A stretch of DNA of 26,460 nt from an uncultured Muribaculaceae bacterium (GTDB taxonomy: Bacteria; Bacteroidota; Bacteroidia; Bacteroidales; Muribaculaceae), in contig CAKUAR010000026.1 in NCBI GenBank assembly GCA_934636465.1, positions 1-26,460 on the forward strand. The letters are read 5' to 3'. The notes beneath the pieces are model-generated. The model was not told where the DNA came from, ran no database searches, and saw only the letters and a program-made list of their open reading frames with translations. Of the stretch, positions 9,554 through 26,460 are shown piece after piece (positions within the stretch are counted from its first letter, which is position 1; each line of letters begins with the position of its first letter). The position numbers and the translations under genes are program-made.

Positions 9554-10837
9554 TCAGTCGATTTGCGGCTTGGCAGCTATTTTCTTGAGGAAATAGTCGC
9601 GCACGTCGCGCCAGTGATAATATGGGGCAACATTGGTCTTGACAGGCAGAGTGGCTTCGTGCTCGTTGAGCAGCACTTTCACGAGCACGTCGTTGCTGCC
9701 CTTTTTGCGATAATAAATCATCTGTATGTTGCAGCCCATAGGGAATATTTTGTAGGCTTGCCAGTTGTTTGCCACTTGCTCAAGGTCGCTTGTTTGGTAG
9801 TCTGCTCCGTTGAGCCCCATGAGGCATGCCAGCGGCAGAAGCACCGATTCGTGGCCAAAGCGCAGGTCGGCGCAATATTTTCCACTGGCTATTGCTTTGT
9901 CGGCGCAATCAATAATGTTGTTGAGCAGGTTCACCTGGTTGTAGTCGATGCGGCAGTGCGTGAGCGGAGTCTCGCCCGACAAGATGTACCACTTGGCGTT
10001 GTTCACAGCCCACACGTTATAGATGTCGTCGGCGGAGAACAAGTCATAGAAGTTCACTTTCTCAAACTGGTGGTGGCTCTGCATGTTGCCAGTCACATCG
10101 AATAACTTGGTCATCAGTTCTGTGCCGTTGATGTTGGCGTTAGCCCAGTTGACGTCGGTAAACAGCTTGGCAAACATGCCTTCGGGGTGAATGTGGTTGC
10201 GCTGGAATGTGAGCAGCAGTGGCGACATGGCACTGCGCCACTTGCCCACCACTGGGTCGTCATAGTTCATGTAGTGCATGTCGGTCTGGCTGGCGTCGGT
10301 GTGAATGTCGAGATAGGGGTTGAGCGACTTGAGCATGTCGGTCTCATTCTGCATAGAGAGTATGCAGCGAATCACGATGGTGGAACGCGCGTCAATGCGC
10401 TTGCCGTTGCCGGCAAACACTTCGGGGAAGTTGCGGAACATGCGGCGTGCTATGCCTTGATGCTGCTCTGCGCCTATGTCGCTCAGTTCGCCCAAGCGGT
10501 TGGTTGCAGCTGTGCGCACCATGCGCAGCGTGTCGAGCACCTGTTTGCCGCGCAGCGTGAGCTTGCCGGCTTTTTCTGCTATCTCGAGCTGCTCCACAGG
10601 CACGTTATATTGCGACGGCGATATGAGCCAACGGCTGCCGTGACGGCCGTAGTGGTTGATGTAGAAAGCCTTGTAGCCAGCCGGTGCTGGTGTGAGCTTG
10701 GGCAGATTGTTGTCGGGATAGGCAACATAGTTGTTGGCACTGAGCCTTGGGTTGGCTTTGAAGTCCTCTTTTGGAGTGCCTGCCGTCACGGCGAGTGCGG
10801 TGACGAGGCAAAGCAGTAGTAATGTGATATTTCTCAT
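9554..10837 (-). CDS. Secreted histidine acid phosphatase family protein (paralogue 2, HE type)
   Basis: A 427-residue protein with a signal peptide (MRNITLLLLCLVTALAVTAG). It is a member of the two-domain histidine phosphatase superfamily: the phosphohistidine motif is RHGSR with His66, and the second motif is LRFGHES at His329-Glu330. The family removes phosphate from esters such as phytate and other inositol or sugar phosphates. The acid/base position is Glu here and Asp in the upstream paralogue. The start ATG overlaps the upstream stop in ATGA (10834-10837), so the pair is translationally coupled. The two proteins are alike over their whole length (shared blocks include ARRMFRNFPEVFAGNGK and KSLNPYLDIHTDAS), indicating tandem duplication. 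Exact substrate unknown. Confidence 0.85.
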   Translation of the reverse strand: MRNITLLLLCLVTALAVTAGTPKEDFKANPRLSANNYVAYPDNNLPKLTPAPAGYKAFYINHYGRHGSRWLISPSQYNVPVEQLEIAEKAGKLTLRGKQVLDTLRMVRTAATNRLGELSDIGAEQHQGIARRMFRNFPEVFAGNGKRIDARSTIVIRCILSMQNETDMLKSLNPYLDIHTDASQTDMHYMNYDDPVVGKWRSAMSPLLLTFQRNHIHPEGMFAKLFTDVNWANANINGTELMTKLFDVTGNMQSHHQFEKVNFYDLFSADDIYNVWAVNNAKWYILSGETPLTHCRIDYNQVNLLNNIIDCADKAIASGKYCADLRFGHESVLLPLACLMGLNGADYQTSDLEQVANNWQAYKIFPMGCNIQMIYYRKKGSNDVLVKVLLNEHEATLPVKTNVAPYYHWRDVRDYFLKKIAAKPQID

Positions 10838-12138
10838 AATTGGTTAAATGATTTTTCGAGTTTTGTGAGTTTTGAGATGTAGTAGGCACGCACGTCGCTC
10901 CAGTGATAGTATGGTGCCATGTCGGTCTTAACCGGCAGTGTGGCCTCATGCTCGTTGAGCAAGGCTTTCACCAGTGTGTCGCTGCTGCCGCGCTTGCGGT
11001 AGAAGACGAGTTGGATGTTGCTTGCCATGGGGTAGATGCAGTAGTTGTGCCAGTGGTTGCTCACTTGCTCAAGGCCGCTCACGGCAACGCCGCAGCTGTC
11101 GAGCTCGAGCAGGCACGCGAGAGGGCCGACCACCATGTCGTGGCCAAACCGCAAGTCGGCGCAAAATTCGCCACCGGCTATGGCCTTATCGGCATCGGCA
11201 ATGATTTTGTGCAAAAGCGGTGCGCGTGAGTAGGGCATCAGCCCTTTGGTGACCGGTGCGTTGCCAAACAACGTGTATGCGCTCACATTCTCAGCATCCC
11301 ACAGCGCATATATCTCATCGTCGGTGAACAGGTCGTAGAGGTCGATCGGGTCGTCCTGGTTCTGCTGAATCGAGGCGATGGCAAACATGTCACGCATCAT
11401 GATGCTGCCGGAGATGCTGTCGTGCGCATAGGTGGAGTCGCTTATGAGCCGAGCCACAAATTTGTCGTGGCTGGTGTGGGCTGCGGTGTAGGCTGTGACG
11501 GCGCTGTGGGCGAGGGTGCTTACCTTGCTCATGCCGGACGTGCCGTACATCATGTAGCCCATGTCGGCCTGGCTGGCATCGGTGTGTATGTCGAGGTAGG
11601 GGTTGAGCGACTTGAGCGTGCCCGTTTCGTTGGTCATCGACAAGACACAGCGCGGGTACACTGTGGAGCGTGCCTGCAATTTCTTGCCGTTGCCGGCAAA
11701 CACTTCGGGGAAGTTGCGGAACATGCGGCGTGCTATGCCCTGATGCTGCCTTGCCCCGAGTGCGGTGAGGTCGCCTGCGCGTCCATCGGCGCGTCGGGCT
11801 ATCTCGCGAAGCCTCGACAGGGCACTCTTGCCAAGGCTGGTGAGGAAGTTGTGCCGGTTGGCGCGTTCAAGCGAAGCCAAAGGTTCACGGTAGTTGTCGA
11901 AATAGCGGCTGCCGTGCCGGCCATAGTGGCTGATGTAGAATGGGCGGTAGCCTGCCGGAGCAGGCGTGAGCCGTGGCAGATCGGCATCGGGATAGGCGAC
12001 AGAGCCGCTCGCGCTGAGCTTTGGGTTGGCCTTAATGTCGCTGCGCGGAGAGCCTGCCCACGACAATGCCGACATGGCAACCACGGCAATGGCCGTGATT
12101 GCTGTCCTTAGTGCTGCTGTGTGTGTGAGCCGTGACAT
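10834..12138 (-). CDS. Secreted histidine acid phosphatase family protein (paralogue 1, HD type)
   Basis: A 434-residue protein whose hydrophobic signal segment lies within residues 9-28. The active-site motif is HYGRHGSRYF with His75, and the second motif is LRFGHDMVVG with His333-Asp334, the HD pair typical of phytase-like histidine acid phosphatases. It lies second in the operon, 30 bases after the GH109-like gene, and overlaps the next paralogue by four bases. It is more GC-rich and Ala-rich than its sister copy. Predicted to act in the periplasm or outside the cell, releasing phosphate from organic phosphates; phytate is possible but not shown. Confidence 0.85.
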   Translation of the reverse strand: MSRLTHTAALRTAITAIAVVAMSALSWAGSPRSDIKANPKLSASGSVAYPDADLPRLTPAPAGYRPFYISHYGRHGSRYFDNYREPLASLERANRHNFLTSLGKSALSRLREIARRADGRAGDLTALGARQHQGIARRMFRNFPEVFAGNGKKLQARSTVYPRCVLSMTNETGTLKSLNPYLDIHTDASQADMGYMMYGTSGMSKVSTLAHSAVTAYTAAHTSHDKFVARLISDSTYAHDSISGSIMMRDMFAIASIQQNQDDPIDLYDLFTDDEIYALWDAENVSAYTLFGNAPVTKGLMPYSRAPLLHKIIADADKAIAGGEFCADLRFGHDMVVGPLACLLELDSCGVAVSGLEQVSNHWHNYCIYPMASNIQLVFYRKRGSSDTLVKALLNEHEATLPVKTDMAPYYHWSDVRAYYISKLTKLEKSFNQL

Positions 12139-23384: not shown

Positions 23385-24473
23385 ATGAGTGAAAATAAAG
23401 ACAGATATTGCGTGATAATGTGTGGCGGCGTTGGCAGCCGTTTCTGGCCCATGAGCCGCAAAGACAAACCCAAGCAGTTCCTTGACTTTTTGGGCACAGG
23501 ACGCACGTTGCTGCAAATGACGGTTGACCGTCTTAAAGGACTTGTTCCGGCCGAAAATATAATTCTTGTCACCAACGAAAGTTATGCCGCTCTCATCAGA
23601 GAGCAGTTGCCTGAAGTGCGCAAGGAGCACTTGCTGCTTGAGCCGGCACGTCGCAACACGGCACCATGCAACGCATGGGCTGCTTGGCACATAGCGGCAC
23701 GCAATCCAAACGCAAAAATAATGGTGGCTCCGAGCGACCACTTGGTGCTTAACCGCGAGGCGTTTGCCCAGAGTGTGGAAAATGCCTTTGACTTTCTCGA
23801 TGCCCACGACCAGGCAATGCTGACCATGGGGGTGAAGCCGAGCCGCCCCGAAACGGGCTATGGTTACATACAGGTGGGTGAGCCGGTGGATTCGAGTTTC
23901 TCGTCGGTGAAGACATTCACAGAGAAACCAAACGAGGAGCTTGCAAAAGTGTTTCTTGAGTCTGGCGAATTTTTTTGGAACTCAGGCATGTTTTTCTGGA
24001 CTGCCAACAGCATAAAGGAGGCTATCAGGGCTTATGCACCCGACATTGCTGCCGTGTTTGACCGCGCGGCCGACGTGTTTGCCACCGATGCCGAGCAGCA
24101 ATACATTAACGAAAACTACGCTTCTTGCCCCAATATATCTATTGACTTTGCGGTGATGGAGAAAACACCAAACGCTTTTGTGGAGCGTGTTGACATCGGC
24201 TGGAGCGACTTGGGCACATGGGGTTCGCTCTATGAGGTGTCGCCGAAAAATCGTGACGGCAATGTGACGCAAAACTGCAAGTCGCTGGCATTTGACAGCC
24301 ACAACAATGTGTTTGCAGTGAAGGGCGACAAGCTGATTGTGGTGTCGGGACTCGACAACTACATTGTGGCTGACGTTGACGATGCGTTGCTCATAGTGCC
24401 ACGCAGTGATGAAAGCAAAATCCGCACCTACGTCAATGAGGTGAAAGCAAATCTCGGTGACAAATATTTATAA
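23385..24473 (+). CDS. Mannose-1-phosphate guanylyltransferase
   Basis: A 362-residue nucleotidyltransferase that makes GDP-mannose from mannose-1-phosphate and GTP. The signature GGVGSRFWPMSRKDKPKQF is at residues 14-32. FTEKP and FWNSGMFFW (sugar-binding region) and VERVDIGWSDLGTWGSLYE near the C-terminus are all visible. The length matches single-domain enzymes; there is no fused phosphomannose isomerase domain as in ManC/AlgA types. GDP-mannose supplies mannose and fucose units for surface glycans. Its nearest neighbour is the zinc-ribbon gene; no glycan cluster is present here. Confidence 0.92.
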   Translation: MSENKDRYCVIMCGGVGSRFWPMSRKDKPKQFLDFLGTGRTLLQMTVDRLKGLVPAENIILVTNESYAALIREQLPEVRKEHLLLEPARRNTAPCNAWAAWHIAARNPNAKIMVAPSDHLVLNREAFAQSVENAFDFLDAHDQAMLTMGVKPSRPETGYGYIQVGEPVDSSFSSVKTFTEKPNEELAKVFLESGEFFWNSGMFFWTANSIKEAIRAYAPDIAAVFDRAADVFATDAEQQYINENYASCPNISIDFAVMEKTPNAFVERVDIGWSDLGTWGSLYEVSPKNRDGNVTQNCKSLAFDSHNNVFAVKGDKLIVVSGLDNYIVADVDDALLIVPRSDESKIRTYVNEVKANLGDKYL

Positions 24474-24676: not shown

Positions 24677-26038
24677 TTACACCTTTGGCACGCTGGAGAG
24701 GTAGTTCTCAATTTCGGCATCGCTCAGCGAGTAGTTTAGCAGGTCGCCGTTGATGTAGCTGTTGTATGACGGCATATCAATTAGGCCGTGGCCAGAAAGA
24801 CAGAACAAAATCACGGTGGGTTTGCCTTCGAGTTTTGCTTTCTTGGCTTCGCGTATGGTGGCGGCTATGGCATGGTTACTCTCCGGGGCAGGAATTATGC
24901 CCTCGGTGCGCGCAAACAGCATGCCGGCTGCAAATGTTTCGAGCTGCGGAATGTCAACACCGTGCATATAGCCGTCTTTGATGAGCTGTGATATTATCAT
25001 TCCGGCTCCGTGATAGCGCAAACCTCCGGCGTGAATGTTGGCCGGCTTGAAGTCGTGGCCGAGCGTGAACATGGGCAGTAGAGGAGTGTAGCCGGCTTCA
25101 TCGCCGAAATCATATTCAAACTTGCCGCGTGTGAGTTTCGGGCAACTGTCGGGCTCGGCGGCTATGAATTCTGTGTCGGCATGCGAGCCGTTGAACTTGT
25201 GGCGCATAAACGGGAATGCAATTCCGCCAAAGTTGGAGCCTCCGCCAAAGCATGCAATCACCTTGTCGGGGTATTCTCCTGCCATTTCCATTTGCTTCTC
25301 GGCTTCAAGTCCGATGATTGACTGGTGCAGAGCCACATGATTGAGCACAGAACCAAGTGTGTATTTGCAGCCGGGAGTGGTGGTGGCAAGCTCTATTGCC
25401 TCGCTGATGGCTGTGCCGAGAGAACCTGGGTGGTTGGGGTCGGCAGTGATGATGTTTTTGCCGGCTCTGGTTGACATCGACGGAGAGCCTTCAACGGTGG
25501 CGCCAAACGTGCGCATTATGATGGAGCGGTAGGGCTTTTGCTGCATGGTGATTTTCACCTGATATACGGCGGCTTCAAGTCCGTAGAGCTTGGCTGCGTA
25601 AGACAGCGCCGCTCCCCACTGTCCAGCTCCGGTCTCGGTGGTCACGTTGGTGTCGCCCTCTTGCTTGCAGTAGTAGCATTGGGGAATTGCAGAGTTGACT
25701 TTATGCGAGCCAAGAGGATTGACCGACTCGTTTTTGAAATAGATGTGCGCCGGAGTGTCGAGAGCTTTCTCAAGGGCGTAAGCTCGCACGAGAGGGGTGG
25801 CGCGGTAGAACGTGTATTTGTCAAACACCTCGTCGGGTATATCTATGAAGCTGTGCTTCTGGTCAAGCTCTTGGCGCGAGCACTCGGCACTGAAAATGTG
25901 GGCGAGGTCGTCGGGCGTGAGCGGCTCGTGTGTGGCCGGGTTCAGCAGCGGCAGGGGCTTGTTGGGCATGTCGGCTTGAATATTGTACCATTGACGCGGA
26001 ATTTCATTTTCTTGTAATAAAAACTTTTTTTGTCTCAT
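24677..26038 (-). CDS. trpB2: TrpB2-type tryptophan synthase beta chain
   Basis: A 453-residue PLP-dependent enzyme. The PLP lysine is Lys113 in NPLGSHKVNSA, the catalytic Glu is in TTETGAGQWG, and the phosphate loop is CFGGGSNFGG. The length, N-terminal extension (RQWYNIQADMPNKPLPLLNP) and inserted segments match the TrpB2 subfamily (COG1350) rather than the ~400-residue TrpB that pairs with TrpA. TrpB2 condenses indole with serine and often works without an alpha subunit; related enzymes accept other substrates such as phosphoserine. The start is the ATG at 26038 (MRQKKFLLQEN); upstream in-frame codons would run into the terminator hairpin at 26088-26115. No other trp gene is in the window. 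Upstream lies a likely attenuator (see findings). Confidence 0.88.
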   Translation of the reverse strand: MRQKKFLLQENEIPRQWYNIQADMPNKPLPLLNPATHEPLTPDDLAHIFSAECSRQELDQKHSFIDIPDEVFDKYTFYRATPLVRAYALEKALDTPAHIYFKNESVNPLGSHKVNSAIPQCYYCKQEGDTNVTTETGAGQWGAALSYAAKLYGLEAAVYQVKITMQQKPYRSIIMRTFGATVEGSPSMSTRAGKNIITADPNHPGSLGTAISEAIELATTTPGCKYTLGSVLNHVALHQSIIGLEAEKQMEMAGEYPDKVIACFGGGSNFGGIAFPFMRHKFNGSHADTEFIAAEPDSCPKLTRGKFEYDFGDEAGYTPLLPMFTLGHDFKPANIHAGGLRYHGAGMIISQLIKDGYMHGVDIPQLETFAAGMLFARTEGIIPAPESNHAIAATIREAKKAKLEGKPTVILFCLSGHGLIDMPSYNSYINGDLLNYSLSDAEIENYLSSVPKV

Positions 26039-26081
26039 AGTTCTTTGAAAATTTATAGTGTTTTTTTTGTGAAAAAGCAAT

Positions 26082-26115
26082 AAAAAACCGGGCAACCCGA
26101 TTGGGGGTTGCCCGG
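26082..26115 (-). terminator. Leader terminator (attenuator) upstream of trpB2
   Basis: Perfect 11-bp GC-rich stem CCGGGCAACCC (26088-26098) with GGGTTGCCCGG (26105-26115), 6-base loop, followed on the minus strand by a T6 run (26087-26082). It lies 44 bases before the trpB2 ATG and after the short ORF at 26157-26285, so it must be bypassed for trpB2 to be expressed from the 26344 promoter. Confidence 0.75.
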
Positions 26116-26156
26116 CAATTAAATATTTTGTTGTTCAATAAATCTCAGTGAAAAAA

Positions 26157-26285
26157 TCATGCCTGCAAAATGCGCCACCCCCGACGGAACTCCTGCGAGC
26201 TACGCCAGACGCGGTTGGCTTCGAATTGGGCAGCACAGATAGCGTTGCCGCCGCGAGCCTGATATGTGGCCATGATTTCAATCAT
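26157..26285 (-). CDS. 42-residue leader ORF with two Trp codons, upstream of trpB2
   Basis: The ORF begins ATGATTGAAATCATG and ends at TGA (26159-26157). It encodes 42 residues, with Trp at 27 (codon 26207-26205) and 37 (26177-26175). The C-terminal part reads RVWRSSQEFRRGWRILQA. It is followed by the terminator at 26115-26088 and then trpB2. A start at Met5 is equally possible. The reading frame uses ordinary codons for this genome. It may be a regulatory leader peptide or a genuine small protein; I infer the former from position and Trp content. Confidence 0.6.
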   Translation of the reverse strand: MIEIMATYQARGGNAICAAQFEANRVWRSSQEFRRGWRILQA

Positions 26286-26343
26286 TTAATTTTAATCTTT
26301 TAAAAAGATGAACTTAAAAACAGCTTTTTTGAAATTGGTGATG

Positions 26344-26375
26344 CAAAAATAAAACGAATTTTTAATTTGACCAAA
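26344..26375 (-). promoter_or_regulatory. Promoter of the leader ORF/trpB2 unit
   Basis: On the minus strand: TTTG (26375-26372), 20 bases, TATTTTTG (26351-26344), exact consensus and spacing. The predicted start near 26337 leaves ~50 bases before the leader ATG. No comparable promoter is visible between the terminator and the trpB2 start; the nearest is TAAATTTT, lacking the final G. Bases 26376-26460 show no further feature. Confidence 0.65.
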
Positions 26376-26460
26376 TGTTTTGGTTGTAGAGTCAACAAGC
26401 AAGTGCAAAATTATTTCAAGAGTTTAAAGAATTCAACTAAAGGCGAAGAAAAATTCAGTT

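What the first reader, a model, noticed from the sequence alone, without database searches (positions are those of the whole stretch)
26082..26375. Candidate tryptophan attenuator controlling trpB2
Seen: an exact promoter, a 42-codon ORF with two Trp codons, a perfect terminator with T6, then trpB2 44 bases later. In addition, GGGGGTGGC over Trp37 (26182-26174, minus) can pair at 8 of 9 positions with GCAACCCCC (26111-26103), which includes most of the 5' arm of the terminator (26115-26105). The two structures exclude each other. A ribosome stalled at Trp27, 30 bases upstream, would leave this arm free, while one reaching the stop codon would mask it. That is the logic of classical trp attenuation. 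I recall a 'Bacteroid-trp' leader motif described for this phylum, but I cannot check whether this is a member; control of a solitary trpB2 by such a leader seems unusual.
Basis: partly seen in the sequence, partly recalled or inferred. Interest (0 to 1): 0.75.

Follow-up and report, generated by a model that had tools for sequence, protein, structure and literature searches.

The report
Possible tryptophan switch before trpB2
A short leader in front of a lone tryptophan-making gene in a gut-type bacterium has the parts of a switch that would turn the gene on when tryptophan is scarce, but unlike the well-conserved switch its relatives carry before the same kind of gene, it rests on a single tryptophan codon and is unproven.

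Summary
The anatomy is real: an exact Bacteroidota promoter (26375-26344, minus), a 42-codon ORF (26285-26157) with Trp27 and Trp37, a terminator with T6 (26116-26082), then monocistronic trpB2. The classical 1:2 hairpin is there too: Trp27 lies in strand 1, and strand 2 overlaps the GGGGGUGGC that can pair with the terminator's 5' arm. In a simulated ribosome walk the antiterminator forms with the ribosome at Trp27 under three footprints, never at Trp37 or the stop. Chance controls are mixed (0.5-12% jointly; single measures up to 50%). It is not Bacteroid-trp (RF01692): no hit, no tandem Trp, 7.6 bits against a model of trpB2 leaders. Relatives of the leader: three database peptides (Trp37 lost in one), none found in 101 + 397 kin genomes. 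The window's trpB2 groups with Segatella/Prevotella genes without Trp leaders, suggesting horizontal transfer under a different, perhaps independently evolved, attenuator. Probability of Trp attenuation: about one half.

The parts
26344..26375 (-). Promoter: -33 TTTG (26375-26372), -7 TATTTTTG (26351-26344), spacer 20; transcription start inferred near 26338-26333, not determined
26157..26285 (-). Leader ORF, 42 codons (38 from the second ATG at 26273, as in database entries P0001 and P0002)
26205..26207 (-). Trp27 codon, the only Trp codon inside the codon range where a stalled ribosome favours the antiterminator in simulation
26175..26177 (-). Trp37 codon, inside segment 2; a stall here gives no antiterminator in simulation; Arg in homologue P0003
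26197..26214 (-). Segment 1: CCGC, TCTGGCG and AGCTC strands around Trp27
   Evidence: minimum-energy fold
26174..26192 (-). Segment 2: GAGTT, CGTCGGG and GTGG strands of the 1:2 hairpin; GGGGGTGGC 26182-26174 is the antiterminator strand
26103..26111 (-). Segment 3: GCAACCCCC, in the 5' arm and loop edge of the terminator; pairs 8 of 9 with segment 2
26082..26116 (-). Intrinsic terminator 3:4, arms 26116-26105 / 26098-26087, T6 26087-26082
24677..26038 (-). trpB2 (TrpB-like PLP enzyme, TIGR01415 and NF009057 above cut-off), 453 aa, followed by its own hairpin with a T run near 24640-24607 (read by eye)

Best explanation
The 250-nt leader is a ribosome-mediated transcription attenuator of trpB2 that most likely senses charged tRNA-Trp through one codon, Trp27. 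With enough tryptophan the ribosome passes Trp27; segment 2 is then covered or returns to segment 1, the 5' arm of the terminator stays free, the terminator forms and trpB2 is off. When tRNA-Trp is uncharged the ribosome stalls at Trp27 and covers segment 1, segment 2 (GGGGGUGGC) pairs with the 5' arm before the 3' arm is made, and RNA polymerase reads through into trpB2, whose product would make tryptophan from serine and indole. Shown: promoter match, ORF, terminator, pairing potentials, and the codon range for antitermination in simulation. Inferred: transcription start, translation of the ORF, coupling, tryptophan response, the enzyme's substrate. It is of the trp-leader kind but has no detectable homology to Bacteroid-trp.
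For: Exact promoter and no good promoter after the hairpin; five leaderless relatives with a hairpin before trpB2 do show, by eye, a -7-like box after it. 1:2, 2:3 and 3:4 pairings with Trp27 in segment 1. Ribosome walk: with a 14/15-nt footprint the antiterminator forms with the A site at codons 21, 23, 26, 27, 30, 31 if upstream RNA may refold, at 21-31 if it may not; of all codons only 26 and 27 do so under all three footprints tried with refolding allowed; Trp37 and the stop never. The same walk on 24 WWW leaders of relatives gives the antiterminator at the third Trp in 23 of 24 (not L142) and at the stop in 0 of 24. Codon choice favours the antiterminator beyond the peptide: 9 of 2000 synonymous recodings as good in both measures. 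Homologous ORFs exist, Trp27 kept in all 4. The kin genus has Trp attenuators on its own solitary trpB2.
Against: Only one usable Trp codon, none in tandem; two Trp in 42 codons is not significant (8%). Trp27 invariance means little when 27 of 38 shared columns are invariant. Other nulls are weak: the antiterminator's energy is reached by 994 and energy plus pairs by 245 of 2000 codon-order permutations; 17-36 of 1000 dinucleotide shuffles match the pairing. Within codons 21-31 the outcome flips with the footprint assumed, and any slow codon there (Arg25, Arg28, Ser29, Ser30) would act alike. The complete terminator wins thermodynamically in every state, as also in the control leaders, so the switch must be kinetic. 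The nearest trpB2 genes have no Trp leader. No Rfam family reaches its cut-off.
Confidence: 0.5

Rival explanations
1. Ribosome-mediated attenuator that senses translation in general or another amino acid (Arg, Ser) rather than tryptophan; Trp27 is incidental.
For: The antitermination range, codons 21-31, holds two Arg and two Ser codons besides Trp27; the ORF is long, Arg-rich and conserved along most of its length.
Against: The controlled gene is a tryptophan-synthesis-type gene, and kin use Trp leaders for the same gene type.
Confidence: 0.15
2. No regulation by the ORF: a small independent gene, or an acquired insert with its own promoter and terminator, stands in front of a trpB2 that came in by horizontal transfer and is expressed by constitutive partial read-through.
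For: trpB2 groups with Segatella/Prevotella genes that have no Trp leader (11-row set, SH-aLRT 99), while Obg is closest to another family. The ORF has 58% G+C between flanks of 17%, its best codon score is in its own frame, though below that of three full genes, and homologues are conserved over most of the peptide. The antiterminator is only modestly above chance.
Against: The three-segment layout with Trp27 in segment 1 and the narrow antitermination range; synonymous codon choice favours the antiterminator. No second copy in the window; the organism's own genome is not held, so a repeat elsewhere cannot be excluded.
Confidence: 0.28
3. A diverged member of the Bacteroid-trp family that lost its tandem Trp codons.
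For: The 11-mer TGGCGTAGCTC (Trp-Arg-Ser-Ser) is shared in frame with L134, L135, L138, L141, L148 and L155, and lies in strand 1 of the 1:2 hairpin in both.
Against: No RF01692 match at E up to 5; 7.6 bits against the trpB2-leader model while the opposite strand scores 11.1; no nhmmer match at the leader, and peptide similarity reached by 566 of 2000 shuffles; the Trp27 site ranks 13 of 1048 TGG sites of the window. The conserved UCGUGAG and its partner are missing.
Confidence: 0.05

Closest known systems
Bacteroid-trp RNA, Rfam RF01692 (listed in Weinberg et al. 2010, PMC2864571; passages of the main text seen, additional files not read)
   Same: Bacteroidota leader before trp genes, short ORF with Trp codons, 1:2 hairpin, antiterminator, terminator.
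   Different: The leaders seen here have an ORF of about 15-25 codons with WWW (or WCW, WW) and a UCGUGAG overlapping or just after the stop that pairs with the loop and 3' arm of the terminator; the window has one usable Trp in a 42-codon ORF, segment 2 inside the ORF, pairing with the 5' arm, and no sequence similarity.
trpL-type attenuator of Proteobacteria, Rfam RF00513 Trp_leader
   Same: Segments 1 to 4; the antiterminator takes the 5' arm of the terminator, as in the window. It had the lowest E-value of the low-threshold scan (0.016 for 561 bases).
   Different: 23.9 bits against a cut-off of 41, resting mostly on the hairpin and T run; VrrA scores alike (25.6). From memory: trpL has 14 codons with two adjacent Trp codons and segment 2 starts near the stop codon.
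trpB2 leaders of the kin genus (this work: 24 of L134-L160, model R1)
   Same: Same gene type, solitary, Bacteroidales, Trp attenuator layout.
   Different: They resemble Bacteroid-trp: of five trpB2 leaders with an RF01692 hit (two from this genus) all score 33.2-40.4 bits, below the cut-off of 49. Different trpB2 clade and different leader from the window.

Membership tests
Bacteroid-trp (RF01692) | Match to the covariance model at or above the gathering score | tested here: not met
   No match in the window and none at E up to 5 in 25900-26460
Bacteroid-trp (RF01692) | Leader ORF with adjacent Trp codons (as seen in the leaders of this work) | tested here: not met
   Trp27 and Trp37 are ten codons apart; relatives have WWW, WCW or WW
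Bacteroid-trp, trpB2 type (model R1) | Sequence and structure match to 26 trpB2 leaders | tested here: not met
   7.6 bits on the right strand, 11.1 on the wrong one; the seven of 80 relatives with a full leader score 77.7-149.7, partly because they or their copies built the model
Bacteroid-trp (RF01692) | Intrinsic terminator directly before a trp gene | tested here: met
Classical trp attenuator (trpL kind, as a mechanism) | Mutually exclusive 1:2/3:4 and 2:3 structures | tested here: met
   Predicted pairings; not probed experimentally
Classical trp attenuator (trpL kind, as a mechanism) | Trp codon placed so that a stall frees the antiterminator | tested here: met
   Trp27 only, simulation
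Classical trp attenuator (trpL kind, as a mechanism) | Conservation of control codons and pairings among relatives | tested here: inconclusive
   Three peptide homologues, Trp27 4 of 4, Trp37 3 of 4; no DNA of relatives found
Classical trp attenuator (trpL kind, as a mechanism) | Read-through responds to tryptophan or charged tRNA-Trp | not testable with these tools
   Needs RNA-seq or a reporter
Trp_leader (RF00513) | Match at or above the gathering score of 41 | tested here: not met
   23.9 bits

The most novel reading that the evidence does not exclude
After horizontal transfer from a Segatella/Prevotella-like donor, a trpB2 without a Trp leader came under a new attenuator unrelated to Bacteroid-trp, built on a single Trp codon in a long structured ORF, while close kin regulate their own solitary trpB2 with Bacteroid-trp-like leaders: independent evolution of the same control on an apparent indole-salvage gene.
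Probability: 0.3. Interest if true: 0.6.

Novelty: new variant of a known kind. Interest (0 to 1): 0.42.

Why it matters
If it works, it is a tryptophan attenuator in Bacteroidota outside the one family I could find described, with a one-codon sensor, and a case where the same control arose twice. The comparison also shows something firmer: in one genus, 24 of 27 trpB2 genes of one clade sit behind a Trp attenuator, and none of those 27 genomes has a detected trpA. That fits control of indole salvage rather than of a full pathway, and can be tested by growth on indole.

Tried and rejected
Membership in Bacteroid-trp by Rfam, own model, profile and peptide comparison: not supported. Shared 11-mer TGGCGTAGCTC as a relic: not better than chance overall. 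Both Trp codons as control codons: Trp37 is excluded by its place. Inserted repeat: no second copy in the window or in the related genomes searched, and no long direct repeat in the region; the own genome is not held, so not fully excluded. Hits to the promoter part in four kin genomes about 3 kb upstream of trpB2 are only a promoter-like stretch; in the one read in full (L164) it precedes a helix-turn-helix-like ORF, and L167 looks alike. Hairpins before trpB2 in L004, L029, L040, L048 and L068: by eye each is followed by a -7-like box, so they look like the ends of upstream genes, and the WW ORF of L068 lies in the upstream gene's end. A known small protein: no NCBIfam match at 0.01 or Pfam match at 5. 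Shared gene order around obg: of nine window proteins only obg was found in 10 kin regions, plus the neighbour next to it in 1 of 10. Literature: searches for Bacteroid-trp, trpB2 with attenuat- and Bacteroid-, tryptophan attenuation with leader peptide and Bacteroidetes, transcription attenuation with tryptophan, Bacteroid- and leader, trpB2 with indole salvage, premature termination with five further terms listed 3, 2, 0, 8, 4 and 0 papers; none is titled as describing a trpB2 attenuator. I opened passages of three and read no paper whole; the library lacks most subscription journals.

Full report
Observation. The gene behind the hairpin is trpB2: TIGR01415 563.7 bits against a cut-off of 518.85, NF009057 665.3 against 366. 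A hairpin with a T run follows it near 24640-24607 and the next gene, a mannose-1-phosphate guanylyltransferase-like ORF at 23385-24473, is on the other strand, so trpB2 appears to be transcribed alone. Between hairpin and start codon the best promoter-like match is 7 of 10 positions and would leave almost no 5' UTR; the promoter at 26375-26344 matches 10 of 10, and a second site upstream (26437, -7 box 26413-26406) matches 9 of 10.

Anatomy. The minimum-energy fold of the leader contains a 1:2 hairpin: 26214-26211, 26209-26203 and 26201-26197 pair with 26178-26175, 26186-26180 and 26192-26188. The Trp27 codon (26207-26205) lies in its first strand and the antiterminator strand GGGGGUGGC overlaps its second. 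With the ribosome at Trp27 and only the 5' arm of the terminator made, GGGGGUGGC takes that arm (-18.7 kcal/mol for the stretch). A walk of the ribosome over codons 3-42 with an assumed footprint of 14 nt before to 15 nt after the first P-site base gives the antiterminator at codons 21, 23, 26, 27, 30 and 31 when upstream RNA may refold, and at 21-31, weakly 32-33, when it may not. With footprints of 12/13 and 16/17 the refolding sets are 24-28 and 21-23, 26-28, 30; only codons 26 and 27 are in all three. The stop codon gives none in any, and Trp37 none. Once complete, the terminator is the stable form in all states tried. This is also so in the 24 control leaders. In these, a walk with the 14/15 footprint gives the antiterminator at the third Trp in 23 of 24 and at the stop in none; L142 fails. 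An earlier, simpler version scored 22 of 24, L142 and L146 lacking the exact motif it looked for; L151 and L154 have the same leader. So the switch, here as there, must act during transcription.

Chance. Complementarity of the upstream leader with the terminator is reached by 36 of 1000 dinucleotide shuffles for the 5' arm, 17 for the whole hairpin and 273 for the 3' arm. For the antiterminator after a Trp27 stall, energy, pair number and both are reached, of 2000 each, by 49, 238 and 9 synonymous recodings, by 180, 89 and 43 insertions of random pieces of the window's genes in place of codons 28-42, and by 994, 349 and 245 permutations of codon order. The last shows that much of the energy comes from composition. 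Two or more Trp codons among 42 has a chance of 8%. Together this is suggestive and not proof.

Relatives of the leader. The peptide has three relatives among 5.8 billion proteins: P0001 (97%), P0002 (92%), P0003 (76%); a profile found no more. Trp27 is kept in all; Trp37 is Arg in P0003. Their DNA and neighbours are not available here. No credible match was found in 10 genomes reached through loci (best E 3.8e-4 over 42 AT-rich bases), in 398 genomes of the genus of G001 with the peptide profile (five weak matches at E 0.003-0.008, three with stops inside, two in longer open frames), in 101 genomes of the genus of G896 (only matches of up to 55 bases), in 397 of its family (none at E up to 1e-4, and the tool warns that an empty answer without a known positive shows little), or in viral contigs.

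Relatives of the gene. The window's organism was placed by Obg alone: at most 72% in 295 genomes of the order of G001, G001 itself 64%, and 86% among 297 of the family of G544, which includes G010, the genome of L066, titled Muribaculaceae. In the genus of G896 (101 genomes), 66 have a trpB2 match. The 27 full-length ones at 79-80% identity (L134-L160) were examined: 24 have a leader such as MTMISAYWWWRSSRLK, a UC-G-UGAG-like motif (AGTCGTGAG exactly in 22) and a terminator; L136 and L144 have only 112 and 119 nt of upstream DNA before a contig end, and L160 has the terminator without ORF. Of the more distant matches only L161-L163 were read, without leader. A model of 26 leaders (A2, R1) finds 32 of 101 genomes at E up to 0.001; 27 matches score 124 bits or more, 26 of them directly before a trpB2 match and one (G889) at a contig end. 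The pairing of GUCGUGAG with the terminator loop and 3' arm holds in 98.5% of cells and in at most 61% when slid by one to three columns, but has no double changes and is no better than shuffles (385 of 500 reach it), so it rests on conservation and not on covariation. In other genomes leaders of this kind stand before trpD (L086, L089, L092) and trpB1 (L091). trpA was found in 5 of 101 genomes of the genus of G896, none of them among the 27, and in 14 of 14 control genomes; incomplete assemblies may add to the absences.

History. In a tree of 109 trpB2 proteins the window groups with L002 (SH-aLRT 83) inside a set of 11 (99) whose other 10 members have no Trp leader; L003 among them has only 103 nt upstream, and L004 has a terminator-like hairpin that is followed by its own promoter-like box. 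Left out of the tree were L073 (a stop), three duplicates (L066, L080, L115) and eight distant rows. Since Obg points to another family, horizontal transfer of trpB2 is likely. The leader belongs neither to the donor-like genes nor to the kin's trpB2 leaders: RF01692 does not appear at E up to 5, R1 gives 7.6 bits against 11.1 on the wrong strand, and peptide similarity is at chance (566 of 2000 shuffles).

Verdict. The finding is real as anatomy, plausible as mechanism, and not a Bacteroid-trp member. I put tryptophan-specific attenuation at about one half, general or other-amino-acid attenuation at 0.15, no regulation by the ORF at 0.28. The firmest new result lies beside it: solitary trpB2 under a Bacteroid-trp-like attenuator in genomes without detected trpA.

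Noticed in passing
24 of L134-L160 (kin genus): Solitary trpB2 with a conserved WWW leader in genomes in which trpA was not found (5 of 101 have trpA, none of the 27 examined): tryptophan attenuation of an apparent indole-salvage enzyme. trpB2 leaders in five genomes (G009, G010, G011, G014, G015; two of this genus) score 33.2-40.4 bits with RF01692, below its cut-off of 49.
   Followed up: partly
L015, L033, L160 upstream of trpB2: Terminator of the Trp leader kept directly behind the promoter, but leader ORF and antiterminator are missing; either real deletions or assembly errors.
   Followed up: no
L186 and L144 (G889): Leader near the end of one contig and trpB2 at the start of another, with GTCCACTAAAAA / TTTTTAGTGGAC ends beside them: looks like an insertion sequence between attenuator and trpB2.
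   Followed up: no
L164-L167: A stretch of about 53 nt resembling the window's trpB2 promoter (78-79%) lies about 3 kb upstream of trpB2 in four kin genomes; in L164 and L167 it precedes an ORF that looks like a helix-turn-helix protein.
   Followed up: partly
window 9554-12138: Two adjacent, similar ORFs (427 and 434 aa) on the minus strand that look like histidine phosphatases (RHGSR motif, from memory); the second has no NCBIfam match at 0.01.
   Followed up: no
window 26437-26406: A second promoter-like site, 9 of 10 positions, upstream of the leader promoter on the same strand.
   Followed up: no
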